A stretch of 64,000 nt of DNA. It comes from Turbatrix aceti. Taxonomy: Eukaryota > Nematoda > Chromadorea > Rhabditida > Panagrolaimidae. Of this stretch, positions 2,311 through 56,700 are shown in pieces (positions within the stretch are counted from its first letter, which is position 1; each line of letters opens with the position of its first letter). Location of the stretch: contig OZ017770.1 of NCBI GenBank assembly GCA_963969345.1, positions 1,745,246 through 1,809,245 on the forward strand. Direction: 5' to 3'. The notes below the pieces were generated by a model. It ran no database searches, was not told the DNA's origin, and saw nothing but the letters and a program-made list of their open reading frames with translations. The position numbers and the translations under genes are program-made.

Positions 2311-5300
2311 TTATGAAGCGTTAACCAGCGATGAACATTGTCGGTAGAAGACAATGTTGAATTCATCGAAGCTTCGACCTTGTTGGTCTTCGCTCATGTT
2401 GCAGGATTCCGTGGTGTATCCGACACGGAAGCGGTAAGCGCTCTTGACGAAGTTACCCGCCGAGAGTTCGTACGTGTTTTCGCCCATCTGAAGAATCAAT
2501 TACAATTATTAAAAGCTTCAAATTTAATCCAACATACCTTGTACGAGGTAGCTTTTTCGGCACTTCCGGTTTCACAGACTTCGTGGGGGAAATCGCGAAG
2601 GCTGCCGCAGTTGTCAACGTATTTGACGTCTCTGACACTACAAAATAAAAAAAAACTATAAATGTTATTTCCAATGCCAATTGTTAAAACCTACATGAAC
2701 TGAACATGAAGCGGGATGGTTGGTAGGAAGGGTGAGATGGGCACGTACAGGTTGTACCGGCCGATGCGAGGCTGGCAACTGTTCTGCACACAGAATCGCT
2801 CATCAAGAGTAATGTTGAGATTTGTGATTCTGACCGTTACTCCGTTGCTGAACGGAACATTCGTCGGTGAGGCAGAAGCTGAAAGATTTTTTGTGTCAAT
2901 AAAATAAATCCCAAGATTGAATATCTTACTTTTCGGCGATGTTCCCGCCACAAGAGCGTTTGTATAGTCATCGTGGGCTTTTGCGACATTATCCGGTGAA
3001 AACTTGGGCATCTTGGACAAACTTGAACAACAATACTGTGGACAAGTATCTTTGAGACCGCATGTTGCCGCTAATATAGGTGCTGTTGGATGTTCTTTTG
3101 GTATAGCGCCGAGTAGGTAAGGTTTCTTTATCACGAGATGACCGACGACTTCTTGCATGGATGTTGACGTATGAATGTGGGGGTTGTAGACGTAAGTTCG
3201 GTGATACCAGTCGAGCACGTATAAAGTGCACATGGCAACCACGCAGAGGGCCATAATCATGACCAGTGTTACGATCGTGCCTTGGGTGAGACGAGTCGTG
3301 CAGGGACTACCCTCGCCGCCGGACTGACAGTTTCGGTGCTTGGTTTTGTGAACCGTTGACTTCTCTGTGCATGTGGTAGCAGCAGAAGCAAGCGAGGCTC
3401 GGGAGAATGACAGGCTTTTGTCAGCCAAAGTGAAATCAGATCCCATCTTGTGCTTGTTCTTGGCAAAGCGTGCGAGCTTTGCGCTGATCTTTTCTACCTG
3501 ATCAATCTTGCATTCGAGGTTGCCGGTTAGTCTGTAGAGCTCTTGCGCAGCAGCAACGGTATCGTAGAAGATACGCGTGTCATCGACGGTGAGGAATTCT
3601 CCGTTGTCACGGACGGCATCCGGAAGGACTTGCGCCAGTTCCTGGGCAATGACACCCACTCGGTGACGGCTCGACTCATCCAAACCCCATTCAGTTGCGA
3701 TTTCCGGTTTGTAGGCATACTCGACTACGCGAACCTGCGCGAGACGAGACATGGCATCACGGGTATCAAGCTCGGTGATATTTTCCTTCACTCTGCGATC
3801 AGATGGTCTCGTGTGCGTGCCCGTAGACACGATATTGCCCATAACCGATAGCTGAGCGTTATCGATCTGCTTGTCATTGCCGATGGCAACCGGGCCTGGG
3901 AAATGAAGGACATGGCCATTTCGTTGCCAGGTAGCGTCGTTGTCGGGCTGCTCAAATTGAGCTGGATTTGAAGCCTATAAAGTGACACAAAATTGGTTTA
4001 TGTTTCTGCATGACAGGTTTCATTTGTGTGCATTTTGTTGTTTCAAGAACTTTACTATCAAGATCATGACCTTTCACTTATCTGAGATGTCACTATACGA
4101 AATCCAAATGGATATTATCTAGGCGCGTTAAACACTGTCTAGGCTGCGTAATGACCTTGATAAGGACAAAGTGAAAATAAGGATACAGCAAAAGTGCAAT
4201 CTTCAATCATTGTCAATTTGTTCACACAAAATTAAACAGAAACGCATGATCCCTAAATGCTTGTGTTTACTACGTTTGTCTACTTTCTACCGATGTACGG
4301 TCAAAAAATCGAAATATCACACCGTTAGTCATCAAGTAAGGCGTTGGAACGCTATCGTGCGTTGGACGATTCCCTCAGAACTGTGTTTTTTTTGTGTCCA
4401 GCTGTACACGATACAGCGCATTTTTGAGCGCGGCAAATACATGATGGTACGAGAAAAGGTGAACACCGCGTCATTTAAATTCGTACAACGTAAGCGAATT
4501 TGTAAGTGAATGTTAGAAAAAAATTTGAATCAAAAAGCGCATGATAGGCATGAATGAATTGGTTTTTAAGCATCGCTATTGATAATCAGAATATTAATAG
4601 CGATTTTCCACTCTCAGTAACTCCCGACTAGTAGAAAAATAGAGAAAAACATACCCGAACGATAACGCGATCTGACTGATACGCCTGGATGAGGGCACAG
4701 GTGCCGTCCGTAGCGTAAGCCATGAGACGAACGACGAGCAGGAAATACTTTTGATCCGGATTAGGCCGGCTGTTCTTTCGGTTGTTGTTGGCGGTAGTTT
4801 CGGAGAAGTGCAGTCTCGGTACCGTTACCTTGGTCACTCGTCGTTCACGAATTTCAAGCGATACAGGTTCATGCGGAATTGGCTTTCTGTCGGTTTGCGA
4901 CTGACGAATCGGCACTTCGTTGGTTGGCATTTCAGCCTTGACACCGCAAAAGGCAAGCTTGAATTCGGTGATCTTCTTGAAGACACCATCAGCGCAGAAA
5001 TATTCAGGTCCGGAGTCGTCTTGGATTTCAATATTTGCGGTGATTTGGAAGTGGTTCTTTTTCTGGTTCACAAAACAGCCATCAATTCCGCTGTAGTTGA
5101 AGCCCTTGTCGGCAACCACGGCCACGGAGACGCGTTGGAGGGGACGTTGATGAATATCATAAAGCTGGGACCATTGTTCTTGCATGTGAGGCGTGAACTG
5201 AAATAATCCAGCTGTTGGATCGAAGGTTGAGTCGGAATACCCTACTCGAATAGTACGCTGGAAATTTTCATCAAATTCATCCGCTGGCACATTGAGAGGA

Positions 5301-8300
5301 AGCGATGGACTGTTGTTATTGCTATTCATGTAGACCCGTGATTGAGGTGGAAGTTCGTCTTTGATGTAGATAGGCTGATTAGTTGGAAGATCAGTTCGCT
5401 TTCGTTTTGCGGCGGGTTGAACGTTGTTGCCGCTGCACACACTGCCATCCGACGAGCCATACATGTCGCCGTTGAAGCCACAGACGTTGGTTTGTGGAGG
5501 AACAATGTAGCGCGAGTTGATGGCCGGTGGCGAAACTTGCGAAACATTCGATCCCGGTGTGGATTGCGGTGGATAGACAAATTCGGTGTGAGGTGATAGC
5601 TGGTTATGCATTGGCATGACCCGGCTCGATGAATTGATATGCTGATTTAGCACATCCTGATTAACAATTTGCCCAATGAGTTGACCATTAAGATCTGGCA
5701 TACCGACAAGTATATTACCGTTTTGTGACACCACTAAAAAACAATATGTCATTGACCTCTTTTAAGTCGAAGAAAACTCACGATAGTTGTTGTATTGGTC
5801 GGGCGAGAACGGTGATTCAGACGTACAGCTCGGCGATGACGTCGAGCCTCCCGCCGAAATGTCTGTTATAGGCGATCCATCGGTTAGGCGTGTATTTCCA
5901 TTGTACATCACATTGCCATCAATGACCACAGGTCCTTGTACCACGCCGTTTTGCGTGGTGTTTAGAACCTGGGCATAGTTATTTGCCGCCGCTTGTTGCG
6001 GGGCCTGAGGATGTAGCCACGCGGTCTCAATGGTGGCGTTGCTTTGATTAGGGTTAGGAGGATGAAACGTGCTTGGGGGATCGGCGAAGTCAGTTCTTAC
6101 CGGATCGGCCGGTGAATCGGCGGGCGTACTACAAAATGAGGAAAGTTTAGATGATGACAAAAAGTTGTGCAATGGGTAAAACTTACTCGTTGTCGTTGAT
6201 AAACTGTAGAATGTTAAAGCCTTCGGTGTAATCCCCAAGCGGATCGCCGAATCCCGTCTCCTCTGAAACAAAAAATATTAATTAAAATAAATCTCAAGGT
6301 TGAATTATTTTTAATACAAGCAAAATGTCACAACTGGCAAAAAAGTTGTGACAAGTTTGATTTAAAAAAAGTTTAAACTTCAAACACACCTCTGCTCACA
6401 AAACTTTGGCGACTAGCCATGCAGACTCATGAAATCAAATAATCAGTCGAGGATAAATTACTAGTATATGTTCAATCTAGAAGAAAAAAACAATGAATCT
6501 TAAATGTCACAAAATATGCAAATGCAAAGCGCGGCACCCGCACTGTCAAGGACCTGCCATACAAAAAACGATGTCGGAAATAAATTACCGGGGGCGATCA
6601 AATGCCAATGGGTGCAGAGGGGGAGGGGGGTGTTAAATGTCAAGTGCCGGGGACAGATCAAGGAACAAAAAAAACCCATTGATTTGCTAAAAGAAGTCGA
6701 TCGGCCGGGGTGGAAATGTATGCGCGCGATGCAAAAAGAACCACACACAAAGCGACCTTCGATGGGGACGGAGAGAGGAGGGGGGTAAGCGAGCGAGGGA
6801 GCGGGAGTGGGGAACGAGATAGCAGTTGCCGGGACGCGGGACAGACAAAAAAAGGCACGAGAGTGAACGCTGGCGGAAGAGAGATTTTATGCGCGACAAC
6901 TGTGCGAGTAACACAAAGGGTGAAGGTCCTCTGCGACAGGCTATGCAAAGAACACGGCGTGTGGCTCGTACCAGGCACCGACACGGAGGAAGGAAGAGCC
7001 TTATTCTTCAAAGCAAACAACATCGATGGCCTCAACGGTTACATCAGGGACTCTGGCGACAGCGAACGGGTCAAAAAACGAGTGAACAATAAAAAACACA
7101 CCATCCATGGATGTGGGGTATCTATTAAATTGATGAATCCCCGTAAATCCGGTGCGCAAAGACAAAAACACACAGCAAAAAAGACAAACAAAAAATTGTG
7201 AACACCTTAAAAATGTTTAAAAAACATAAAAATTTGTTTTGGAGTTTATAACGTTCTGGTAAAACAAAGCAAACTATATTTCCTTTGCCAATGCAAATCA
7301 ATCAACAAAAACCCATTCCACAAAGGTTACCCCCAGACTTGGGCCAGCTGGCTCGAAAGGTCACAGCTGCGCGAACTGAGTGCAGCGCTAAGGGTGGCAC
7401 CGAATGTGAGAGGAAGCCGTCATTAAAAGCGCAAAAATAAGCAAAACACAAGACCAGTGATAACAAACGCACCTGAGGAGTTCGTTAGGATAAAAATGAA
7501 TCAAAGGAGGACTGTCAACCACAATAAGGCGAAAAAACGACGCAGAAAACGTACGCTTTTTTTCTCCATGACCTTGCCCGCCAGAAAGATCTACTGTGTG
7601 AAGGTCACGCAGAGGCAGAAGAAGTCGGCCGAAAACATTCATGGTATAGAGAAAAAATTTTTTTTACGAAATTGCGCACCATGATTGTATGTGTTTAGGC
7701 GTGCACACGGGGTAGTACTACTTCACCCCATCAGACACAAGGACAATCCGGAACGTGATGCGTTGTAGGGTTGAGAGGTTGCAATTTGCCTGGTTGACGA
7801 GAATACAATTCACTTTTTACAGATCACTAGGTGCCCTAGATCTAGGGGTACTCCTTTCATGTGTCCAACAAAAAAGTGTTTTACCGAAAAAGGGGTTAAA
7901 AATAAAATCAAAGTATGAAAAATACGTAATTGCGTAAACAGTGACAGGGTCAGGGTTGTAGGAAATGCGCGCGCAAAAAAAACAACACCGGATATATTTT
8001 ATGCAAATGAATTTGGTTCGTCAGCTAGTTAACGAAGTAGGGAAACGACATACCCCACAGATCGTCGTGGACCTTCTCCGTGCGAACGGAAATGCATAGA
8101 AAATAAACAAACACACTCAAAAAAACGCACACCGTTGGTTAGTGATTTGGCCGCCAGACATACCGCAGGCTTGACACGTGTGTGAAGTTCGGGGTAGGTT
8201 CGTGCCAGTTGGGAAGAAGCACGGATGCAAAAACATTGACGAAAAATGCTGCACTCTTGCAAGATATGAAACGCAAAAAAAGCCTCGTTTTAATAAAGTT

Positions 8301-12260: not shown

Positions 12261-12464
12261 TGTCGCCGCCAGCGAAGTCGCTGGCAACGAGCTCTTGCCA
12301 GTTGTCAGCGACAAGCGCTCCCGGAAGCCCCCCGATCCCCCCGAATCGGCCGGATACATATCCGGCCGCAAAGGGGGTATAAATGCGCTTACGTTTTGCA
12401 TTTTTGATGTGCTTGGATTGAATAAAGAAAGAGCTTTCTACTCTCTCTCTTGGATCGATTGAAA
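12261..12464 (+). repeat. 5' LTR
   Basis: 204 bp, starting TGTCGCCGCC and ending ATCGATTGAAA. It holds a TATAAA box at 12378-12383 and an AATAAA poly(A) signal at 12421-12426, so U3, R and U5 can be placed roughly. I find no base difference from the 3' copy by eye. The ends are TG...AA, not the usual TG...CA. Confidence 0.95.
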
Positions 12465-13900
12465 TGGTGCAATCGGCTAGTGGACCCCTGCGTACCACTA
12501 TCGGGCGGCAGCGCGCGACTCTACGCTCGCACCTGGCCCGCCTCGCGGCCGTCGAACTCAACGTGCCGGACGATCCGGCGGCCATCGCACGCCTCTACCT
12601 CGACCTCAAGGGGCTCGATTTCAATATCCAACTTCACACCGAGAAGTTGGACGACTCGGTGGACGCCTGGCGCGGCATCATCCGCGGCCTGTCAGCGGAC
12701 GACGCGTACGACGAGGCCCAGCTTCTGGACCAGTGGCTTACCGGCACAGCGACGATCGAGAGCCTCAACGACTGCTTCGGTGACGCACACACCAAGCGCA
12801 ACGACATCGCGACGCACCTCGCCGAATTAAACTCGCGCCACATGGTCTTGACGACGCGTCCTTTGCGCACACCATCGGCCTCGATTGCTGAAGCCTCTCC
12901 GCCACCCGAGACCAAGGTTCCTACATCTACGGACCTGAACCAGGCAGCAGCACAGCAAGTCGTGCACCCGTCGGCCCCGCCGTCTTCCGCTCCGCCAGCT
13001 CCAGCTGCCGCACCCGTCGACTCCGCGGTTCCTCCGGCATGGGCCAGCCATGCCCCCTCAGGTCAGTTCCACGGATTTTCTTACGCACCACAACTCATGC
13101 CGGCTTACCCCGCAGGCACGTTCTATCAACCCCGACCCGGCGTGACCGCCGCGGCTCCGCCACACATGGCTCCGATCACCTCCGCTCCGCCGTCGATGGT
13201 CATCAACGGACAGCATCCGGCGCTACCATTCATGACTTCGCACGGTCCGCAGCCTACGGCCCCTCCGCTCACGGCAACTACGGGTCTGCTTTCCTCGGCC
13301 ACGCAGCACACGGCACCGATCGGGCACTACACGGGCGCGCCACAGCACGTGGCCCCGTACGCTCACCCAGCAGTCAGGCAGCACGCAGCAGCAACGGGGC
13401 CACCGCCGCTTCCTCAGCGCCCCAGCGAATGGTCGCGGCTTCCTCGCATGGAGCTACCTACGTTTGATGGCTCGCCCTCCAAGTTTCTCCACTTCTGGGA
13501 AACTTTTCGGGTCACCATCGACGCTAGGCCCATCCCGTACGTCGAGAAGTGCACGCTCCTCTTCTCACATCTCAAAGGAGACGCAGCGCTTGTCGTGGAC
13601 GGTCTCCAGCCAAGCGAAGAGACTTACGCCATTGCTCTGCAAACCCTGCGAGAACAATTCGGGCAAGTCGAAGACGTGAGCGAGGCTCTGCATCAAGAAC
13701 TCGCCGACATCCAACCGTGCCCGCCCAACGCCACGTACCTGCATCACCCTCGGAAAAGCAGAACGACTTCTACGTCAAATGAGCACGCTCGGCGAAGACA
13801 CCGCTCACCCGCAGCTCCTCCGCATGGTCGAACGCCTAGTGCCCTCAGACTTCTTGGCCCTCATCTGGGACAAGTGCGATGGACGCCGGACACTCGATGA
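12464..13900 (+). CDS. gag: Gag-like protein of the BEL/Pao element
   Basis: 478 codons. The start ATG straddles the LTR/PBS junction: its A is the last LTR base and its TG the first bases of the primer-binding site. The N-terminus is mostly charged, residues about 140-320 are rich in Pro, Ala, His and Gln, and from about 325 there is a DUF1759-type capsid-like domain (MELPTFDGSPSKFLHFWE). The frame leaves that homology near 13700-13740 and ends in unrelated Arg-rich sequence, while the rest of the domain continues in the +1 frame used by pol. Zinc knuckles are therefore not in this frame. Either a frameshift makes the full product or this copy carries a one-base indel. Confidence 0.85.
   Translation: MVQSASGPLRTTIGRQRATLRSHLARLAAVELNVPDDPAAIARLYLDLKGLDFNIQLHTEKLDDSVDAWRGIIRGLSADDAYDEAQLLDQWLTGTATIESLNDCFGDAHTKRNDIATHLAELNSRHMVLTTRPLRTPSASIAEASPPPETKVPTSTDLNQAAAQQVVHPSAPPSSAPPAPAAAPVDSAVPPAWASHAPSGQFHGFSYAPQLMPAYPAGTFYQPRPGVTAAAPPHMAPITSAPPSMVINGQHPALPFMTSHGPQPTAPPLTATTGLLSSATQHTAPIGHYTGAPQHVAPYAHPAVRQHAAATGPPPLPQRPSEWSRLPRMELPTFDGSPSKFLHFWETFRVTIDARPIPYVEKCTLLFSHLKGDAALVVDGLQPSEETYAIALQTLREQFGQVEDVSEALHQELADIQPCPPNATYLHHPRKSRTTSTSNEHARRRHRSPAAPPHGRTPSALRLLGPHLGQVRWTPDTR
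12465..12482 (+). promoter_or_regulatory. Primer-binding site
   Basis: TGGTGCAATCGGCTAGTG directly follows the 5' LTR. The opening TGG complements the CCA end of a tRNA, as required for priming minus-strand DNA. The tRNA was not identified with certainty; the first seven bases would fit a glycine-type 3' end (…GCACCA). Confidence 0.7.
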
Positions 13901-16900
13901 CGTCCGTCGCATTGCCCACCAACTCTTGGCCTCGCGCGTCCGCATTGGACGACAACACCGAGACCCCCTCGCAGTTCAACCGCACGTAACCACCTTGGCA
14001 ACAGCTATCCAACCCACCCACCAGCGCAGGAACCCGAAAGCCACTGAACCACCACGTGATGCCACGGACGGCGCCGCTAAACCACGCCGACCGTGCCTCT
14101 TCTGCAACGATGCAGCCCACAGCACGACCCGCTGCACCAAGGTGGTCGGCAGTGAACAGCGAAAAGCACGCATCCGCGAGCTGCGTCGCTGCTTCATCTG
14201 CCTGTCGGCGGATCACTTGTCCACCGGCTGCGACAAGCGTCAACGTCCGTGCCGCTCCTGTCACAAAACTGGGCACCACCTGGTACTTTGTACCCCCAAC
14301 AACGACACAACGAGCGGCACTGTTGCTCCGGCGCCAGCACCGGCGGCACAAGTGACCACAACGACGCTGTCATCGGCGAACACCTACTTGCCGTTGACAA
14401 CCATCCGCGTCCATCATCACCAGACCAACGCTGACGTTATGATGCTCCTCGACTCGGGCAGCGAAGCCAGTTTCATCTCTACGACATTGGCAAAGTCTCT
14501 CAACCTCCCAGTCCTCGACGACACCATGCTCACGGTTGCCACCATTGGCGGCCGCACGCAGCAGATTTCCGCGCAACGACATCAGATCCGCTTGCTTCGC
14601 ACGGACGGGGCCGATCTCGTGGTCAAGTGTTGGGCGGTCGACGATCTCTTACAACCGCTCAAGCACGCCGCCGCCGCCCCTGACACCACAGCAGCCGTCG
14701 ATGTCCTCATAGGCATAGACGCCTACTTTGATGTCATCCAAGGACCACCGCAACGGCGCACGGACGGCCTCTACGAGCTCAACACCGTATTTGGCCCCAT
14801 CGTTTGCGGACAAGTGGATTCCTCAGCCATGGTCACGGCAGCGCCACTTCGCGTGTCACCCGCGCAGTCCAAAACAGCGCAACTCTCAGAGCTCCTCCAG
14901 AAGCAGTGGGCACTCGACGCCATTGGCATCAGCGATGACCCATGGGAGCAAGACGATGACCGCGCCTTGAGCGAGCTACAGGCATCCATCATACGCACGC
15001 CCGACGGCCGCTACCACGTGCGCCTGCCCCGACGACCGTTACCGGCGGACTTCAGCGACAACTTTTTTCTGGCACGTGCACGATTGCTGTCTACGTCGCG
15101 GCACTGGCAAACGACAAATCCCGAGAGCTGGCAGGCGTATGTCGACATCATCCAGCAACAGCTCACGGAGCGCATCATCGAGCCCGTTGCCCTAGACGCC
15201 CTTCCTACGGGCCCCTGCCACTACATCCCTCACCATATGGTGGTCACGGACAAGAAGAAGCGTATCGTCTACGACGGTTCGGCCAAGCAAGGCAGAACAG
15301 GGCACTCCTTGAACCAGATCCTGTACCGAGGCCCGTTGCTTCTGGGCAACCTGGCGTCCATTCTACTACGCGCGCGGTTCGCTCCGATTCTGGTTTCGGC
15401 GGACGTCGAGAAAGCGTTCCTCATGATCGGCATCCAAGAAGACGACCGGAACCTACTGCGATTCCTATTTCTCAAAGACCCGACGAAACCCGCTTCTGCC
15501 GACAACCTGATCATCTATCGGTTTACCCGACTCCCCTTCGGGCTCAACTGCTCACCGTTCATCCTGAATGCGGTGCTGCGCCAGCACCTGTCGACGGCGG
15601 ACGGTAACCTCGCACAAGTTATCGCCGACATGATATACGCCGATAACGTCTTCATGCCAGCCCGCACGACGCACGAAGCCCGTGAACTCTGCATCCGTGC
15701 CAAAGCACTTTTCGCGGAAGCCAAGATGAATTTGCGGCAGTTTCGCTCCAACGACGCAACAATCCACGCTGAGTTTGCCGACAACGACGACCCGTTCAAA
15801 ATCCTGGGCATCGTTTGTGACACTGCGCAAGACACCCTCCGGATCGACTTCCCGACGGCACCAGCAGGACCCGTGACAAAGCGCGTCATCGCCAGCGTCG
15901 TCGCGTCAGTCTACGACCCGCTCGGATGGACCTCCCCGGCTCTTGTACCTGCTCGTCACTTCCTGCGCGACCTGCACGGCCGATACGACTGGGACGCCCA
16001 ACTTTCTGACGGCGACACCGCTCGTTGGCAGCGACTCCTTCACGGTTTCGCGGGCAAAACCTGGACCGTGCCTCGCTATCTACCCGGTAACCTGCCGTCG
16101 GCACGACTTCATGTCTTCTGTGATGCATCCAAGCATCACTACGCAGCGGTCGCCTACCTGGTCTTTGCGGAACCCACGCAACGCCCTCAGTTGCTTATGG
16201 CCAAATCCCGCATTGCACCCACCACCATGACAGAAAGCGAGGTACTCGACATTACCATTCCTCGTCTTGAACTCGTGGCATTGCACCTCGGCGCCCAGTT
16301 GTGTTCTTTTCTACAGACACACATGGCACTGCAGGCAGCACCGGCACTCTGGACCGATTCACAGGCGGCCCTCGGCTGGGTACGATCATCTCCCCAAGCA
16401 GTTCTACCCGTGTTTGTCACGAATCGCGTACGTTTCATACGCTCTGTCACCACGACAGTGAACTACGTGTCGACCACGGACAACCCGGCAGACATCGGTA
16501 CGCGTGGTCTCGACCCTGACGAGCTGCGAAACAGACCGGAATGGCTACATGGACCGGCATGGCTTGCGCAGCCCGAAGCGACATGGCCGTCGTCACCCAC
16601 TGTTCCGGCGTTCGCTACTCGTGTTGCGGAATCGGCGTCAACGTGGCCGTGTGTCAACCTACAGTCGAGCAACAGCTACATTGGTCTGGTTCGCGCACAG
16701 GCACTCGTTCATCGTGCGTGTGCTCGATTTCTGCAACACAGAGCCTCGACACCGCTCATGAAACAACTCACAGCGGCAGCACAGGCCCCCAAGTTGTCGG
16801 CGACCGACCTCGCAATCGCCAAACGCGTTCTCATCCTACAGGCGCAGCAAGACTTTCCTCCGACCAAGATGCACACCCCGGTGCTCTTCACGGACGTCGA

Positions 16901-19900
16901 CGGCGTTCTGCGGTACGACAGCCGTCTGATCCACTCACCGCTGTCAGCAGATGCATGTCAACCCGTCTTTCTCTCGCCGCAAGCACTGCTCGCCAAACAT
17001 CTGGCCGCGCACGTGCATCTGCAACTTCGACATGCCGGCGAACAAACGACGTGGACAGAGTTGCGCCAGCAGTTTTGGATCCCACAAGGCAGGCAGTTGG
17101 TCAAAGGACAACTACGTCGATGCGGTGCCTGTCGTAAACGGGATGCGCGCCCGTTTGCGGCCCCTCCAATGGCAGCATTACCGGCAACACGAGTCACGCC
17201 AACGCGTCCGTTCGACCACGTGGGCCTGGATTACTTTGGTCCTTGTACAGTGCGGTCCCCCACGGAGCCCACGCAAGCTATGAAAATCTGGGTCGCAGTC
17301 TTCACATGCTTCGTCACGCGGGCAGTGCACCTCGAAGTCGTACATTCGCTCTCAGGGTCTTCCTGCTTGGCAGCTCTACGGCGATTCTTCTCACGACGCG
17401 GGCGACCGTCCTCGATAACTTCCGACAACGCGACTACATTTCAACTTGCCAGCTCGGCAGTGCGCACCGCTTGGCCCGAACTCCAGCTACCACCGGCAGT
17501 CACCGACGCACTCGATGAGCACTGCACCAACAATGGCATCACCTGGTCGAACATCGTGGCACATGCACCGTGGCAAGGTGGCGTCTGGGAACGCATCATT
17601 GGCGTCATCAAGCAGCCGCTGAAAAGCAGTATCGGTCGCAGTTGGCTTCACCTCGAGGAATTTACTACCTTACTCGCGGAAGTTGAATTCACGATCAACT
17701 CCCGACCGCTTACGCACAGCTCCGCGGCAGCGCCAGAAGTCTTTCGTCCTCTTGACTTTCTGTTGCCTCTGGGCACGCCAAGTGTCATCCCGACGACTCT
17801 TACAACTCCTCCGCAAGCCGCCGCAACGACGGCCGATCTTTTGGCGCTATGGCGCGACAGCCACCAACGCCTCGAAACATTCTGGCAGCACTACCGCAGC
17901 GTCTACCTCATGGACCTTCGCGACCGGTCTGAACGCCTACTGCACGGCACACGTTACCACGAGCCACGCATACCGGTCATCGACGAGGTGGTTCTCATGC
18001 TCGACGACGCTGTTCCACGCAACCAGTGGCGTATCGGGCGTGTGGTGGCGCTCCACGACTCCGCTGACGCCGCAATTCGGTCGGCCACCGTCCGCATGGC
18101 CAACGGCCGTACTGTTCGCCGCCCCGTCAACAAGCTTGCGCCCTTAGAGTTTGCCGTTGACAGTCCAGCCATCACCAGCGACTCCACACCCGTGCAACTC
18201 GATCGTTCGCCGTCGCCAACGGCAGCCGCAGCACCAGAGGCCCGTCGCCGCCGTGGTCGTCCTCGTAAGCACCCTGCACCTCTACCAGCGGCGACTTCTC
18301 CTGAAGCGGCCCCACCGCAGTTGCCACCTCAGATGCCGCGCTATGAGCTTCGTCCGCGTACTCAACCACGCGCGCTGGCAACTACCGCGACTGTGGCAAT
18401 GACACTTAGCGCCTGGCTCCCCCGTACGGACGCACTTCCCCTCGTCAACGCACCAGTGATCACAGATACCTTCATCTTTGGTCCGGTCGGCTACGCATGC
18501 CTCATCTTGCTCACGCTTATCCTCTGCTGCACCACGATCGGTCATCTTATGACGGTATTCAACCCCCTGGCCATCGTCTGCCGCCTCGTGTTGCAACTAC
18601 TTAGCCTACCACTGCGGTTGCTCTTGTGGCTCGTTTGCCGCAACCCCCGCAGTGCCCGTCGTCGCGTCATCTTCGCACTTTGCCTGCTGTTTCTTCCGGG
18701 TGGCGAGGGTGCCGTCTGCACAACGAGCAACGTCATGTCAACGTACGCGGCACAATGCACGGACTCAGGATGCTCCCACTTCGGCGAAGCACGTCTGACG
18801 TTGCGCGACGTGGGACAACGACCATGCTTGCTATTGCTGGATAGCAACGACACGGTTCACGGCCAGATCGCCCTAGCCCTCCACAAGCCACAGCTACTTT
18901 GTCGACCACGACACATGTTTGACACGCGTAGCTATAAGACGGCTACGGCAGCAGTGCAACGATGCCCGGCCAGCGGCTCATGTGTTCTCAACACGTGCGC
19001 AGAGGTCAAAGCCAACGACCACTTACCGGAGTTCGACAACGTGAACCAGTTTCCGGGCACGACTTCATGCGTAAATGGCCCAGAATGGATCTTCACAGGG
19101 TGCGCTTTGCCCACCCCGTCATGCATCTTCTACAGACTGGTGGCACTACCGGAGGACGACACACGTGCGATTTCGATCTATCGATGCGACGAATGGGCAA
19201 GCAGCGTTCAAGTCATCGTGGAACTTACCACACGACACACCACGGAATCAACTCGCGTACGGCTCTACGACGGAGTGCCCACCACCGTAAGCGGCAACAT
19301 CACGGTTACGCTGAACCAAGCCCTACAAACACCCGGTGAAGTCTTTCTCTTGCGACGAGGACAGGAATGGGCGATCGCACCCTCGCTCGACGCAATACGA
19401 CTACGGCGCAGCCACGGCGAGGAACTGTTTACCTTTCAGCCGCGATGCGGCTGCCAACCGACGGCGACGACGGTCAATTGCCTGTGCGAGCCAGACCCCC
19501 CGCTACAAGCCTGGCTAGACGATGCCTTGCCAACGCCATGGAAGACCGGCCTGCTGCACTCGACGCCTGCGGGGCCTGCATTTCGACCGGACCAAGCTAC
19601 CGTCGAACTCGAAGTCAGCATCGCAGGTTGGCACTTGGCATCATCCAGCGCTGCCGAGACTAACTGTACGATCACGGTGGGACCAACACTTACGGCAGCG
19701 ACCGGCGAAGCAGTGACGGTGCTGTGCAGCGCCCCAGAAGAAGAGCAGATTCTCGTCGAATGCGGCAACGAGGTTCTTGTGGTGGAATGCAACACCACCA
19801 CCGCGGCCACTATGATCACTCTACCGGTCTCTGACGACGGCGAAGTGAGGTGCAGCGCCCGCTGCGCAGGAGTCGCGCACGCCGTCATCTTCCGGCAGCA

Positions 19901-20042
19901 TCAGGCAAGCAACCCGTACCGCCCCCTTGCAGCACGGCTACCAACTCTCACCGAGGCGACACCGGACTCCCGAACACTGCTCCTCCTCGACCTCGTGGCC
20001 GTGGGCGTGCTGCTTCTCGTCTGCCGCCACCGTCGTCGCTGA
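13779..20042 (+). CDS. pol: Pol-envelope polyprotein of the BEL/Pao element
   Basis: 2087 codons from the first in-frame ATG; the frame is open back to 13680. Approximate residues: end of the gag domain 1-60; CCHC-like zinc knuckles about 106-170 (CLFC, CFIC); aspartic protease about 221 (LLDSGSEASFIS); reverse transcriptase about 450-680 with SADVEKAFL and YADN at about 620; RNase H from about 780 (FCDASKH); integrase with a His/Cys finger at about 1074 and catalytic D, D, E near 1149 (GLDYFGP), 1214 (SDN) and 1269 (WERIIG); a DUF5641-like tail to about 1450. From about 1540 there are hydrophobic helices, a basic RSARRR, a second signal-like segment, a Cys-rich ectodomain of phlebovirus Gc type (CTDSGCSHFG and following) and a C-terminal anchor. 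Envelope is fused in frame to pol. The second Asp of the RT YxDD motif is Asn. No internal stops. Confidence 0.93.
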   Translation: MSTLGEDTAHPQLLRMVERLVPSDFLALIWDKCDGRRTLDDVRRIAHQLLASRVRIGRQHRDPLAVQPHVTTLATAIQPTHQRRNPKATEPPRDATDGAAKPRRPCLFCNDAAHSTTRCTKVVGSEQRKARIRELRRCFICLSADHLSTGCDKRQRPCRSCHKTGHHLVLCTPNNDTTSGTVAPAPAPAAQVTTTTLSSANTYLPLTTIRVHHHQTNADVMMLLDSGSEASFISTTLAKSLNLPVLDDTMLTVATIGGRTQQISAQRHQIRLLRTDGADLVVKCWAVDDLLQPLKHAAAAPDTTAAVDVLIGIDAYFDVIQGPPQRRTDGLYELNTVFGPIVCGQVDSSAMVTAAPLRVSPAQSKTAQLSELLQKQWALDAIGISDDPWEQDDDRALSELQASIIRTPDGRYHVRLPRRPLPADFSDNFFLARARLLSTSRHWQTTNPESWQAYVDIIQQQLTERIIEPVALDALPTGPCHYIPHHMVVTDKKKRIVYDGSAKQGRTGHSLNQILYRGPLLLGNLASILLRARFAPILVSADVEKAFLMIGIQEDDRNLLRFLFLKDPTKPASADNLIIYRFTRLPFGLNCSPFILNAVLRQHLSTADGNLAQVIADMIYADNVFMPARTTHEARELCIRAKALFAEAKMNLRQFRSNDATIHAEFADNDDPFKILGIVCDTAQDTLRIDFPTAPAGPVTKRVIASVVASVYDPLGWTSPALVPARHFLRDLHGRYDWDAQLSDGDTARWQRLLHGFAGKTWTVPRYLPGNLPSARLHVFCDASKHHYAAVAYLVFAEPTQRPQLLMAKSRIAPTTMTESEVLDITIPRLELVALHLGAQLCSFLQTHMALQAAPALWTDSQAALGWVRSSPQAVLPVFVTNRVRFIRSVTTTVNYVSTTDNPADIGTRGLDPDELRNRPEWLHGPAWLAQPEATWPSSPTVPAFATRVAESASTWPCVNLQSSNSYIGLVRAQALVHRACARFLQHRASTPLMKQLTAAAQAPKLSATDLAIAKRVLILQAQQDFPPTKMHTPVLFTDVDGVLRYDSRLIHSPLSADACQPVFLSPQALLAKHLAAHVHLQLRHAGEQTTWTELRQQFWIPQGRQLVKGQLRRCGACRKRDARPFAAPPMAALPATRVTPTRPFDHVGLDYFGPCTVRSPTEPTQAMKIWVAVFTCFVTRAVHLEVVHSLSGSSCLAALRRFFSRRGRPSSITSDNATTFQLASSAVRTAWPELQLPPAVTDALDEHCTNNGITWSNIVAHAPWQGGVWERIIGVIKQPLKSSIGRSWLHLEEFTTLLAEVEFTINSRPLTHSSAAAPEVFRPLDFLLPLGTPSVIPTTLTTPPQAAATTADLLALWRDSHQRLETFWQHYRSVYLMDLRDRSERLLHGTRYHEPRIPVIDEVVLMLDDAVPRNQWRIGRVVALHDSADAAIRSATVRMANGRTVRRPVNKLAPLEFAVDSPAITSDSTPVQLDRSPSPTAAAAPEARRRRGRPRKHPAPLPAATSPEAAPPQLPPQMPRYELRPRTQPRALATTATVAMTLSAWLPRTDALPLVNAPVITDTFIFGPVGYACLILLTLILCCTTIGHLMTVFNPLAIVCRLVLQLLSLPLRLLLWLVCRNPRSARRRVIFALCLLFLPGGEGAVCTTSNVMSTYAAQCTDSGCSHFGEARLTLRDVGQRPCLLLLDSNDTVHGQIALALHKPQLLCRPRHMFDTRSYKTATAAVQRCPASGSCVLNTCAEVKANDHLPEFDNVNQFPGTTSCVNGPEWIFTGCALPTPSCIFYRLVALPEDDTRAISIYRCDEWASSVQVIVELTTRHTTESTRVRLYDGVPTTVSGNITVTLNQALQTPGEVFLLRRGQEWAIAPSLDAIRLRRSHGEELFTFQPRCGCQPTATTVNCLCEPDPPLQAWLDDALPTPWKTGLLHSTPAGPAFRPDQATVELEVSIAGWHLASSSAAETNCTITVGPTLTAATGEAVTVLCSAPEEEQILVECGNEVLVVECNTTTAATMITLPVSDDGEVRCSARCAGVAHAVIFRQHQASNPYRPLAARLPTLTEATPDSRTLLLLDLVAVGVLLLVCRHRRR

Positions 20043-51190: not shown

Positions 51191-52912
51191 ATGGCTTCCG
51201 GAGCACGTCCTTCAAGCAACCAGCGTTCTACATTGGATGCAAACACACCAGGTGGAGGGGGAGGTAAAATGGTGACTTCCCGTGGACATCGCCATGCTTT
51301 GGAAAGCGAATCTCAGCCGATCGGTTCAGACTTTCTTACCAAGGTAAACAGGGTTCAAAGAAACCATTTTTTTACCGTATAATTTTTTAGTGTGTTGTTT
51401 GTGGCGATCGTGCTTGCTCGCACTACTATTACGGCGTCGCTGCCTGTCACGGGTGAGTAAGCCATCTGAAATTCAATTTTTTACTTTCGTTATTCTTGCA
51501 GTTGCAAGTGCTTCTTTTGGCGCTCTGTAAAGCAACAAGCTCAGTACATTTGCCGTTACAACAAAAAGTGCGATATCACAGTCAGCGCCCGAAATGTCTG
51601 TCGTTATTGTCGTTTTCGACGCTGTCTGGCCGCTGGGATGCAACCCGAATCTGTCCGTCTTGCCAAAAATGACAAACGTGTTGACAAGGTCAAGAAAGAT
51701 TTGGTCGAAAAAACTTGCAATGGTTTTTCCGACTCCGGTTATGCATCCCCCAAGGTCTCACCGATTTCGAACAATAGTCAGACGCTTTTGGCCAAGATTG
51801 TTCAACTGGAAAGCCGCATCTCAGAAGAAGCCGACTTCAACGAGAATCAGCAAACTCAATTGCTTGGCTCGCTTCAAGAAGTAGTGTCCTTTCCTGAATG
51901 CCTAGATGCCTATCGTACACGTGTTACCTACTGCATCCGTCTTCGCAACGTCACCGAAGAAGAAATGAATTTCTGCAAGTTTCGTACCCTGACGTACTCT
52001 CTGGATTATATTCGTAACCTTCGAAATCTTCATCCGGAGCACCTCTGTTTAGCTGATCAGATTGCTTTAATTCGTAGTTGTTACTGCGCTCTGTCGATCT
52101 TCTGCATTACGGTGGGCACGATTGAAACCACGAATGTGGATACCCTTCTCTGCCTTCCGACAGGAATCACGGTCTCAACCGAGGAAAACTTTATCTCCAA
52201 TAGGTTCGTTTTTTTTTATAATTCTTGTTCTGTTATTTACATTTATTACTCTTACTTGTGGAGATTGCACGAAGAGGGCGCCGTCAATTGCAGCTACCTG
52301 TTCTGTTATTACATTATTTATTTTTTTCAGTTTTATGAGTCAAGCTGTAGTCGTTAACATCATCAACAATTTACTCAAACCCGTTAGAAGTTTGAAACTT
52401 AGTAACGAAGAGATCAATTTCCTGAAAGCAATTATTGTTGTCAACAGCGAAGCAGTTGGCTTAACACTGAATGGTCAACGTGTCGTCGGTGATATTCAAG
52501 ACCAGCTTCATGCTGCTCTGTACGAACACTACGAGAGCACGATGGATGCTAGCTCAGCTCCGTTGCGTTTTGCAAAAATCCTTCATCTTTTGCCTAAAAT
52601 TTTGGTTGGTTTTTTTTTTCAATTTTGCATTGCAAAAATGCAATTTTGTAGCTCTTGTCTCGCGATCTCATTGAGCACATCAGGATGGAGCATACGTTCA
52701 ACGTCGAAACGCGACGCGTCGATCCCCTCTTCTACGAACTCTTTGGTGACATTTTCCATGAACCAAGTGACACTACCAGTCTGCCTCAGCCGTATTCCAA
52801 CATCTCCAGCGGGTTTGTTGACCTTTTTGAGGAAGGAAGTTTCATTGATGAAGCTATTTTTTTCAGTGATCAGGAGGCGTCTCCCCCATTTTATGGGTGG
52901 ACACCCAGTTGA
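51191..52912 (+). CDS. Divergent nuclear hormone receptor
   Basis: Five exons: 51191-51343, 51391-51452, 51502-52203, 52331-52604, 52652-52912; 483 residues to the TGA. DNA-binding domain: first finger CVVCGDRACSHYYYGVAACHGC, then KCFFWRSV, second finger CRYNKKCDITVSARNVCRYC and RFRRCLAAGMQPESV. The second finger is close to HNF4/supplementary nematode receptors. The first has an extra residue between its Cys pairs, and an odd P-box (CHGCKC for the usual CEGCKG). The ligand-binding domain is helical with the signature LADQIALIRSC and an AF-2-like end PLFYELFGDIF. In the last exon, 52813-52866 looks like a 54-base in-frame intron (GTTTGT...TTTTTCAG) that may be kept or removed. An ATCAG acceptor-like site lies five bases before the start. 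After the TGA the frame reopens; see the separate entry. Confidence 0.92.
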
Positions 52913-53146
52913 CAATTAGATGCAACCGGCTACGGTCAAGACGTCGGATATGGCTCTAGCCGGTTGCATCGAGAAGGCGATGCCCGCGAACAGGCGACGC
53001 TAAAAAGTGCGTCGTTGCATTGCCAAAATTTATTCGACAGTAATAACAGTGGGTCTCAAAACACTACCTACTCAGCACACTTGCCATCCATCGGTTCAAT
53101 GACGACTACAGAATACTTTTATGGTACTTCTGGCAATAACGCTTGA
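52913..53146 (+). CDS. Candidate readthrough extension of the nuclear receptor (77 codons)
   Basis: Directly after the receptor's TGA (52910-52912), the same frame is open for 77 codons to a TGA at 53144-53146. The residues (QLDATGYGQDVGYGSS..., later NNSGSQNTTYSAHLPSIGS) are Gly/Ser/Asn-rich but protein-like, and the base composition is like the exons, unlike the AT-rich DNA that follows. The stop is followed by CAATTA, matching the CARYYA leaky context, and by a 14-bp stem-loop. I found no donor and acceptor pair that would splice out the stop and keep the frame. Alternatives are UGA read as selenocysteine, a recent nonsense mutation, or a sequencing error. Confidence 0.6.
   Translation, partial: QLDATGYGQDVGYGSSRLHREGDAREQATLKSASLHCQNLFDSNNSGSQNTTYSAHLPSIGSMTTTEYFYGTSGNNA
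52919..52970 (+). promoter_or_regulatory. Stem-loop just downstream of the receptor stop codon
   Basis: GATGCAACCGGCTA (52919-52932) and TAGCCGGTTGCATC (52957-52970) are exact reverse complements, a 14-bp stem with a 24-base loop. It begins six bases after the TGA. The position fits a readthrough-stimulating or stop-redefinition structure in mRNA. Confidence 0.8.
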
Positions 53147-53714
53147 ACTCGGATGCAAAATCATAAAGTTCGCACCACCACTCATCATTCAGTTGATTGT
53201 GAAGTCCGCAATGACTTCGGCATATTTATCCTGTCAAATGGCCATTTAATTGTACAAGCTACTATTTTTCTCTCTGAATGATACCAAAGTTTTCTTGTTT
53301 TTTTAGTAAAATATTTTTATCTTTATTTTTTATACCTGTTATTTTTTTGTAATAATGTTTTAAATAGTTTTGTATTATGTGTTCTCTGTAAAAAAAATAT
53401 TGTAATGTGAAAAATGAGCAAATGAACATGCGAAAAACTGGATTACATTGTATCACACTTTTGCAAATGGTTAAAGGGTGCTTAAGAAAATCTCATTCAT
53501 CAATAGAATTATTATATAAATATATCAAGTGAGATTGTGTTTTTATCTTTGGATTTGACTCGCAACTTTGTGAAGATGCTCAAAAATGAGGATCGCTGCT
53601 CCGCCTTTATGACTAGATGCACTTGACTTACAGAACGGGTGCCTTTTTGGCGTCAAAGCATTTACGCCTGTTTCAATATTGTCAAAAGCAAAATCATCAT
53701 ATTTCCCGTTAAAA
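53147..53714. other. Spacer between nuclear receptor and PAN/ZP copy B
   Basis: Very AT-rich, including a T-rich stretch at about 53290-53400. No coding frame or RNA gene is supported. It must contain the receptor's 3' UTR and whatever drives copy B. Confidence 0.5.
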
Positions 53715-56700
53715 ATGAACGCCATCGTTTTAGTAGCAGTACTTTTTTTCAACGTAACGACCTTTGGGCGTAGGTTCAGAGTATTCATTTATTTACCATT
53801 AATTAACGTTTATTTCTTTAGAGTTGTCACGACTAACCAACGACGACAGGGAGACTTTTTCTTCGTCTACAGGTGTGCAATGTACCAAAAAGAAAGAACA
53901 AAAAAGCTTTATTCGATATTCAAGACGAAAACGTCTGGAAACGCCGTATTCAACGCTGAGATCCGCCACGCTTCCACAATGCGCATCTATATGCAAATCA
54001 AACATGGATCAAGTATCCGGGCTACCATTTGATTGCCAGGGCTTTAGCGTCACAATTCTAGATGCAAGCCAAAAATGTGATTTTTACACAACACATTTAG
54101 GCATCGAAAATCTAGATTCGGTCTCTGTCATTGATAACAGATCAATGTATTTTGCTGCTGAATGTTTAGAACTTCCGAAAACATGCACTTCGAGTATCTT
54201 TACGCTAGAAATTTCCCCCGACAGTATACTTCCGGCAAAACCAATTGACTCAGTCATCGTTGTTGATCGTAAAAGTTGTTTTAATTTATGTCTTAGCAAT
54301 GCGGACTGTCAATCGATTAACTTTGATCGGAAAACAAGGCAATTTAGTTTTTGTCTCTGTTTATTGATGTGAATATCGTTTTATTTGCAGGACCTGTCAC
54401 GTTCTTCCATCTTCCAATCGACGGCCTTTAGCAAAGATGATGCCTTTCATGGGATCCGACTATTTTGAGGTCACCTGCGTAAAAAGTTAGTAAACAGAGT
54501 CGGACGTCGTCTGGGAGCTAAAACAATTAAAATTTAACTACCTTTATAGAATTTGTTTTTTTTAGAGATACAATGCGATCAGAATCAGAGGGTAGATTTC
54601 TTTGCAACAATGAATGCAAAAACTAACGGATTGCACATTTCCATCGGTGCCATGTCATTGAGGAACTGCATGCGAGAATGCCTAAAATCATCTATGATTA
54701 ACTGTCGCAGCATTCAGTACAACACAATGCTTCATACATGTTCCCTTGTTGATGACACAAGTGAGGTTACTCAGCATGCTGATTCTACACATATTTTTGA
54801 ACCAGTGTGTTTATCGGACATCGTCGACATTCCCTGTCACGGAGACTTCGCTTTCCGACGTACGCCAAACGTAGCTTTGGTAGCCGAAACAATGCTGGAA
54901 GAAATTAGCGGTGATCCGTTACTTTTAAACATCAAAATATAAATAGGGTAATAAATTTTAGATAGTTCGCTGGACGCATGCATGGATCGGTGTCTTCAAA
55001 ATACCCGTTGTCTGTCAATTGTTCGCAACAAGACAAATCGCAGTTGCGTATTGTTCCAACAAATTGAATCAAGCAGATCTGTTACAAATGAAAGCTTTGA
55101 TTTGTATGAATTAGCATGCAAGCGTACGGCAGTATGGATTAATACAAAGCCAACTATAGTTTATACTTCGCAAATTCAAACTACGACTCCAAGCCCCACA
55201 ACCATAAAAAACTCGCCTGACGGACGTATGTGTGGTTCAATGCTGATCGAGAGCGGCAGAACTTTACGACTTCAATACCGTAATCTGCATCACATTTCTG
55301 TTAACAGTGAACAACAATGCGAAGTTTATTGCGCACGCAGCACAATTGACTGCCATACTTACGTCTATAGCCAACGTCATCGTGATTGCTATCTTTCAAA
55401 CATCGAAGTACACAAAAATGACACATTTGAATACTTAACGCAACATAATGCTGATTATGATTTGTACGCATACTACGACGCAGAATGCCTAGAAACAGCT
55501 GTGCTACAAACAGGTTTACTAACTTTTATACTGATAATGAAAAGCGATTTTTACTCTTTGCATTTTTAGCGATTACCACGACTCCAATTCCAGATGACAA
55601 CGAAGATTCATCAAATTCAAGTACATCAAGCGAAGACGCTCAAAATAGTACTCAATCAACTTCTGATGAAATTTTTCACATAGATTCCAACTTCTTAGAC
55701 ATGGATTTTACAGAAGCAATTTCTGAAAGCACATTGCCACTTACTATGACGACATCGCCAGAAACATCAGCAAAACACAGAAAACCAATCAAATCACAAG
55801 AAGTAGCTACCGTAGTTACTACTGAATTGCCAGTAGTGTTTAAAGATTTTCCACAGCCACATCAGCGTGGACGCACAAATCTTCCGGTTTTGTACAAAAC
55901 ATCAGTTGTGAACGTTGAACAGACACTTTTCGAGGAAGCACTTGATCAATTGCCTCGACAATTAGAAGAAACTGAGGATCATAAAAGAATACCAGTGAAC
56001 AATATTACACTACACGCTGATTGCTTGCCCTCAGGCATCAACATCACGGTTTCGACAACGGGCAATGTTAGATTTTATGAAATGTGTTCGTTTCCCCATG
56101 ACCTTTTTTGTTTCCTTTCAGCGTTACACAGGTGCTCTGTATGCGGCAGAGAGGTTTGCATCGTGTAGAACGTTAGTGCACCACGACCGAGAATTTTCAC
56201 TTTTTATCAACCGATCAGTGCCTCGAAATTTATGCAATGCCTTGGAAACTGTAATTTTTGCCATGAATTGCTTAAAAAATGTGTTTTTTTCCAGGATAAT
56301 GTGCTAACAGTCGTCGTCGTGATGTCGAATGACCTGGTCTTACCTTTGGACGTTACGACCAATCATGACTTGTTCTATCAAGTTACCTGCGACTATAAAG
56401 AACCTTCACACGACATCAACGTGCACTCTGGAATCATTGTCGGGTAACCTAAACTCCACATTTTTATTACTCCCTTTTTTTCTTTTTTTTTCAGGGGACC
56501 AGAGCCAAGATCAATTCAATCAACTTTTAAATTTCACGATGAAAAACGAAGTCGAGTTGAGTTTAAAATAATGAAAGGTGATCGACTGGCAGAAAGCGTC
56601 TTGATAGGAGAACAGCTAACTGCTGTAATTGAAACCGATGCCGAGAGTAAGATAACTATCATGCAGCTTTGAATGATTGACAACGCGTGCTACTTTTCAG

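What the first reader, a model, noticed from the sequence alone, without database searches (positions are those of the whole stretch)
52910..53146. Probable programmed stop-codon readthrough in a nuclear receptor
Three independent signals meet at one TGA. The next six bases are CAATTA, fitting the CARYYA context known from leaky viral and cellular stops. Six bases after the stop begins a perfect 14-bp stem (52919-52932 with 52957-52970, 24-base loop). The same frame then stays open for 77 codons with exon-like composition, ending at a second TGA. The product would be a receptor with a tail beyond the AF-2 helix, which could change co-regulator binding. I know of no described case of this in a receptor of this kind, though I could not search.
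Basis: partly seen in the sequence, partly recalled or inferred. Interest (0 to 1): 0.88.

Follow-up and report, generated by a model that had tools for sequence, protein, structure and literature searches.

The report
Leaky stop codon in worm receptor
A nematode hormone-receptor gene ends in a stop signal that looks built to be skipped some of the time, which would give a second, longer receptor; the signal is real, but whether the worm makes or uses the longer form is unproven.

Summary
The gene is a nematode nhr-97 orthologue. TGA 52910 is its normal end: 29 of 52 homologues stop 24-43 residues after the AF-2 motif, this one 33 after. TGACAATTA is identical to the stop site of Drosophila bi, read through at 33-38% in [psi-] yeast (PMC3609751). 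I found a second hairpin; the 124 bases after the stop fold at z = -6.4. The best in-frame splice bypass has a weak acceptor.

The weak point is the tail as protein. Only 400 of 13535 dinucleotide shuffles stay open, but given openness its codon signal is ordinary (30.5% of open shuffles score as high), its first half fits another frame better, and the stretch after the second stop scores higher. Similarity to one Panagrolaimus tail is marginal (p 0.015-0.028). No relative's DNA was reached, so conservation of codons, context and stem is untested.

Verdict: a good readthrough candidate, probably leaky, function unproven. It is not the first in a nuclear receptor: human VDR does this (PMC5868278).

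The parts
51191..52912 (+). nhr-97-like receptor gene, main ORF of 465 codons: exons 51191-51343, 51391-51452, 51502-52203, 52331-52604, 52652-52812, 52867-52912
   Evidence: joined translation is open; zf-C4 1.8e-21 and Hormone_recep 9.3e-20; homologues. Exon borders are my own model, no cDNA
52733..52756 (+). AF-2 helix core YELFGDIF
   Evidence: position; aligned motif in homologues
52813..52866 (+). last intron, 54 nt (GTTTGT...TTTTTTTCAG), no effect on frame and open if retained
   Evidence: acceptor fits the local model
52910..52912 (+). TGA stop of the main ORF, candidate readthrough site
   Evidence: stop position conserved in short-form homologues
52913..52918 (+). CAATTA, CARYYA-type post-stop hexamer
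   Evidence: published assay of the same nonamer, PMC3609751
52919..52970 (+). hairpin 1: 14-bp perfect stem (52919-52932 / 52957-52970) plus inner 5 bp (52934-52938 / 52951-52955)
52976..53024 (+). hairpin 2: 16 bp with a 9-nt bulge (52976-52983 / 53017-53024 and 52993-53000 / 53009-53016), 8-nt loop
   Evidence: -24.6 kcal/mol, z -3.23; both hairpins together -56.4, z -6.38
52913..53143 (+). 77-codon in-frame extension, half S, T, N, Q, G
   Evidence: no Pfam family over cut-off
53144..53146 (+). second in-frame stop, TGA followed by ACTCGG
53031..53040 (+). best-scoring in-tail splice acceptor (TATTCGACAG), in frame with donor 52813; weak

Best explanation
The normal stop of this nhr-97 gene is a readthrough stop. 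UGA followed by CAAUUA terminates poorly; two hairpins, the first beginning 6 nt after the stop, may hinder termination further. A near-cognate tRNA decodes UGA in a percent-level share of ribosomes, which translate 77 more codons and stop at 53144. Most product is the 465-residue receptor; a minority is a 543-residue form with a polar, probably disordered tail beyond AF-2 that could change coregulator or partner binding, as VDRx changes VDR output. Shown: stop, hexamer, hairpins, open frame, conserved position of the first stop. Inferred from published assays of the same nonamer: leakiness. Inferred only: that the hairpins act, that the tail is used, and its effect. The confidence is for percent-level readthrough in the worm; that the tail is also selected and used I put at about 0.4.
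For: Nonamer TGACAATTA identical to Drosophila bi, 33-38% readthrough in [psi-] yeast (PMC3609751). Hairpin pair at z -6.38, as stable as 14 of 4227 genome windows, 2 of 646 at matched GC. Open frame kept by 400 of 13535 shuffles. Stem-loops placed just after a stop promote readthrough and their distance matters in Drosophila dfr (PMC13170385, section 19). First stop conserved in 29 of 52 homologues, so it is no premature stop. Whole-tail score exceeds all but 1.2% of 568 noncoding windows. Tail resembles the Panagrolaimus sp. ES5 tail at p 0.015-0.028.
Against: Against open shuffles of itself the tail has no significant codon signal (30.5% as high; exon 5 1.5%, exon 4 in its true frame 0 of 190); the first half fits frame +1 better; 53147-53278, after the second stop, scores better (4.8%). 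Tail homology not established: the best of 12 comparisons is p 0.021, and 2 of 84 control comparisons there reach p below 0.02. Searches with the P0004 tail and with four aligned tails found no relatives. No relative's DNA. Few readthrough genes are known in nematodes (5 in C. elegans, PMC5100048 passages).
Confidence: 0.55

Rival explanations
1. Chance or non-adaptive leakiness: an ordinary stop that happens to carry a leaky hexamer, in front of a structured 3'UTR whose hairpins do something else (stability, protein binding) or nothing. Any extended protein is noise.
For: No significant codon signal in the tail and a better one after the second stop. The 0.29% rate of CARYYA after TGA triplets lets several genes per genome have it by chance (inference). 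The structure stops at about 53024, well short of the second stop. Tail homology not established.
Against: Hexamer, strong structure at the right distance and a 77-codon open frame at one stop is an unlikely meeting.
Confidence: 0.3
2. Alternative splicing removes the TGA: the last-intron donor (52813) is joined to an acceptor in the tail (best 53040), giving a shorter long form ending in NNSGSQNTTYSAHLPSIGSMTTTEYFYGTSGNNA.
For: The 228-nt intron keeps frame. Length-matched, 53039-53143 scores better than the first part of the tail. Annotated long forms exist in 16 of 52 homologues, and short and long strongylid proteins part at the same place; how those are made was not seen.
Against: Acceptor 53040 scores 2.7; 13 accepted sites score 6.1-13.4 and decoys reach 5.2 (8 of the 13 were picked by eye and all were scored on themselves, so the model leans to consensus sites). 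52913-53036 has GC 0.52, against 0.28 and 0.32 for two other introns of the gene.
Confidence: 0.1
3. The UGA is a selenocysteine codon.
For: tRNA-Sec matches over the cut-off in this genome (75.2 and 59.2 bits); a stem follows the UGA.
Against: No SECIS match in 52300-55000 even at E up to 10. Short homologues end at about this place. The tRNA-Sec search also rang in 14 of 14 control genomes, over the cut-off in 5.
Confidence: 0.02

Closest known systems
Human vitamin D receptor readthrough, VDRx (PMC5868278; abstract, passages and Discussion read)
   Same: Nuclear receptor; UGA-C stop after the ligand-binding domain; extension of similar length (67 against 77), inferred to be largely disordered; little sign of deep conservation.
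   Different: VDR uses UGA_CUAG, 6.7% in reporters, with antibody and ribosome-profile support; here CAATTA with two hairpins and no experiment.
Drosophila bi (PMC3609751; sections 5 and 6 read, passages elsewhere)
   Same: Identical nonamer TGACAATTA; called a readthrough candidate in its own species.
   Different: Not a nuclear receptor (recalled); 33-38% is a yeast figure. The other two metazoan genes were tested there for predicted RNA structure; bi was chosen for its hexamer.
Drosophila drifter/vvl, dfr (PMC13170385; section 19 and passages read)
   Same: Stem-loop just after the stop (+9 to +59 there; 52919-52970 here, +7 to +58 if the first base after the stop is +1; I did not check their numbering origin). 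Nucleotide constraint at the start of the extension, codon pattern only beyond.
   Different: UAG stop, POU factor, stem shown to act by deletion and spacing changes, conserved across 29 Drosophila species.
C. elegans C18B2.6 (PMC3609751)
   Same: Nematode; TGA-C; predicted post-stop RNA structure.
   Different: No CARYYA; supported by coding conservation; 2.9% (DualGlo) and 1.0% (DLR) in [psi-] yeast. I could not see the names of the other four C. elegans candidates.

Membership tests
Programmed stop-codon readthrough genes (metazoa) | Leaky stop context | tested here: met
   TGA-CAATTA by sequence; leakiness itself from a published yeast assay of the same nonamer, not measured here
Programmed stop-codon readthrough genes (metazoa) | Open in-frame extension to a second stop | tested here: met
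   77 codons; 400 of 13535 shuffles stay open
Programmed stop-codon readthrough genes (metazoa) | Extension under protein-coding selection | tested here: inconclusive
   single-genome codon signal not significant against open shuffles; above most noncoding windows; no relatives' DNA for Ka/Ks
Programmed stop-codon readthrough genes (metazoa) | Post-stop RNA structure (frequent, not required) | tested here: met
   two hairpins, z -6.38; conservation not tested
Programmed stop-codon readthrough genes (metazoa) | No splice route around the stop | tested here: inconclusive
   in-frame combinations exist but acceptors are weak; no cDNA
Programmed stop-codon readthrough genes (metazoa) | Extended protein or footprints observed | not testable with these tools
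   no ribosome profiling or mass spectrometry held
NHR-97-type nuclear receptor | zf-C4 DNA-binding and hormone-receptor domains, best homologues of that group | tested here: met
   three of 52 homologues are named nhr-97, among them C. briggsae; no tree was built
Selenoprotein | SECIS element in the 3'UTR | tested here: not met
   no match at E up to 10 in 52300-55000; divergent SECIS not excluded

The most novel reading that the evidence does not exclude
NHR-97 receptors have two C-terminal forms across nematodes, a short one ending about 30 residues after AF-2 and a long one with a polar tail. Other species appear, from their annotated proteins, to make the long one by splicing; this lineage makes it by ribosomal readthrough, with the hexamer and two tandem hairpins standing in for the splice site. 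The same pair of isoforms would be kept while the mechanism was swapped.
Probability: 0.1. Interest if true: 0.78.

Novelty: new member of a known kind. Interest (0 to 1): 0.5.

Why it matters
If used, it would be a receptor readthrough case in a nematode, outside the arthropods where readthrough is abundant. It joins a strong hexamer and stable structure at one cellular stop, so reporters could separate the two parts. It would give a second nuclear receptor, after VDR, with a tail added at the ribosome, and make it testable whether this is a recurrent way to tune receptor output. If not used, it is a caution that an open frame, a leaky context and a hairpin can meet without a codon signature.

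Tried and rejected
Mobile element: no support; exact copies of the arm occur only as the two arms here, with 14 single-mismatch matches elsewhere against 6 for the reversed control pattern, and the tail is single-copy in the own-genome searches. Known RNA family: only a rox2 match far below its cut-off. Premature stop or assembly error: unlikely, relatives end at about the same place. Selenocysteine: no SECIS. Profile-HMM test of the tail: the script ended in an error because no score for the tail was reported; not repeated in that form. Protein search with the P0004 tail found only P0004 among 46 candidates; with four aligned tails, none of 31 candidates. DNA of relatives: 18 pattern matches in viral contigs and 60 in genome contigs, none confirmed. 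A first codon model was replaced because some exon frames in it were off by one and it separated coding from noncoding poorly. In one search exon 4's true frame is the row 'frame 2'. In one search the half-tail scores came from a model for longer stretches; I use the length-matched ones. Structure prediction was not run.

On rechecking I kept the odds that it gave, added the odds missing for two rivals, and reworded the control counts.

Full report
What is there. The window lies in a 59.9-Mb assembly of 28 contigs. The gene is a nuclear receptor: zf-C4 1.8e-21 and hormone-receptor LBD 9.3e-20. It has 52 homologues at E <= 0.001 among the 7997 candidates that were scored; those with an organism name are nematodes, the best being Panagrellus redivivus and two Panagrolaimus at 53-55% identity, beside JGI proteins without organism name at 46-56%; three records bear the name nhr-97. 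The spliced ORF has 465 codons. Its last intron, 52813-52866, is 54 nt and leaves the frame unchanged, so TGA 52910-52912 ends the ORF spliced or not. Exon borders are my own model.

Is the TGA the real end? As far as proteins tell, yes. After the AF-2 motif GDIF this protein has 33 residues. Of 52 homologues 29 have 24-43, 16 have 71-400, and 7 lack the motif in my pattern. Several Panagrolaimus-like short forms end alike (YDPS, YDQS, YSPS; here YGWTPS). So this is not a premature stop.

The signal. TGA-CAATTA fits CARYYA; 28 of 9813 TGA triplets in 264 kb of this genome do, this one included. The same nonamer ends Drosophila bi and was read through at 37.7% (DualGlo) and 33.4% (DLR) in [psi-] yeast (PMC3609751, sections 5 and 6). 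Behind it the 14-bp stem is perfect (-31.8 kcal/mol, z -5.33). I find a second hairpin, 52976-53024 (-24.6, z -3.23); both together give -56.4 kcal/mol, z -6.38. Of 4227 overlapping genome windows of that length 14 are as stable, of 646 GC-matched ones 2. The structure ends at about 53024: 53037-53143 has z -0.86. Exact copies of the arm occur only here. In Drosophila dfr a stem-loop at +9 to +59 promotes readthrough, and moving it by 3, 6 or 9 nt lowers it (PMC13170385, section 19).

Is the tail protein? Here the evidence is thin. For: 400 of 13535 dinucleotide shuffles stay open; GC is exon-like (3.9% of 568 noncoding windows reach it) and the whole-tail score is reached by 1.2% of them; length-matched, 53039-53143 is reached by 2.7% of noncoding and 2.0% of shifted-frame stretches. 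Against: compared with open shuffles of itself the tail's in-frame score is ordinary (30.5% as high), while the same test gives 1.5% for exon 5 and 0 of 190 for exon 4 in its true frame. The first half, which carries the hairpins, fits frame +1 better. The 132 bases after the second stop score better than the tail (4.8%; 0.4% of noncoding windows), so the score is not specific to the tail. A structured start can hide a codon signal: in dfr that part is conserved as nucleotides and the codon pattern appears only beyond. That excuses the first half but does not show that the second is selected.

Relatives. Sixteen homologues have long tails. The one most like ours is P0004 (Panagrolaimus sp. ES5), with D..G.G..YG...RL near the start and TNEQFYGSNTNN against TTTEYFYGTSGNN near the end; shuffle tests give p 0.018-0.028 (best seen of 16 tails), 0.021 (best of 12) and 0.015 (of 2). 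P0003 against P0004 gives 0.006 and 0.004. Mean z over 12 tails is 0.71 for ours and -0.20 to 0.48 for seven control sequences; 2 of 84 control comparisons reach p below 0.02 (reversed tail against P0035, 0.007; another frame against P0008, 0.002), none of ours does. So homology is suggested, not established. Searches with the P0004 tail and with four aligned tails found nothing more.

Rivals. Splicing around the TGA is possible in frame (donor 52813 to 53040), but that acceptor scores 2.7 against 6.1-13.4 for 13 accepted sites, and decoys reach 5.2 (8 of the 13 were picked by eye and all were scored on themselves). Selenocysteine is unlikely: tRNA-Sec matches exist but no SECIS was found. Chance leakiness in front of a structured 3'UTR is the main rival.

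How it would work. UGA with CAAUUA terminates poorly; a stable stem 6 nt downstream may hinder the termination complex (the VDR paper's Discussion, calls the mechanism still unknown). A near-cognate tRNA decodes the stop in some ribosomes and a 543-residue receptor results. The added tail is half S, T, N, Q and G, so probably disordered (inference). In VDRx such a tail goes with a lower ligand response.

Known or new. Readthrough in a nuclear receptor is known: human VDR, 6.7%, 67 residues (PMC5868278; abstract, passages, Discussion). C. elegans has five conserved candidates (PMC5100048, passages); I could see only C18B2.6 by name, since the 2011 paper that lists them is not held. A library search for 'readthrough' with 'nhr-97' returned 0 papers, 'nhr-97' alone one, on male tail tips (listing only); a wider search on nuclear hormone receptors timed out. 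So, if real, a new member of a known kind; that it is the first in a nematode receptor I cannot claim.

Judgement. That the stop leaks at percent level when tested in a reporter: about 0.8. That percent-level readthrough happens in the worm: 0.55. That the tail is selected and used: about 0.4. Interest 0.5.

Noticed in passing
window 12422-20042 (+): GC-rich (about 0.6) Bel/Pao-like retroelement: DUF1759, aspartic protease, reverse transcriptase, Peptidase_A17 and integrase zinc-binding matches and a phlebovirus G2-like envelope domain. Observed only.
   Followed up: no
window 53147-53281 (+): After the second TGA the same frame stays open for 44 codons and 53147-53278 scores as coding-like as or more than the tail. 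Unexplained: chance, an older longer tail, or a second leaky stop.
   Followed up: partly
nhr-97 homologues P0036, P0038, P0039, P0049, P0051 (strongylids): Short forms end SCSPSSVVSS while the long Necator form continues from SCSPS into another tail, as if a splice donor lay there; DNA not seen.
   Followed up: no
window 2691-5761 (-): A myelin-regulatory-factor (MYRF) type gene: NDT80/PhoG DNA-binding, Peptidase_S74 chaperone and MYRF_ICA matches.
   Followed up: no
window 52813-52866 (+): The last intron is 54 nt, a multiple of three and free of in-frame stops, so its retention would add 18 residues.
   Followed up: no
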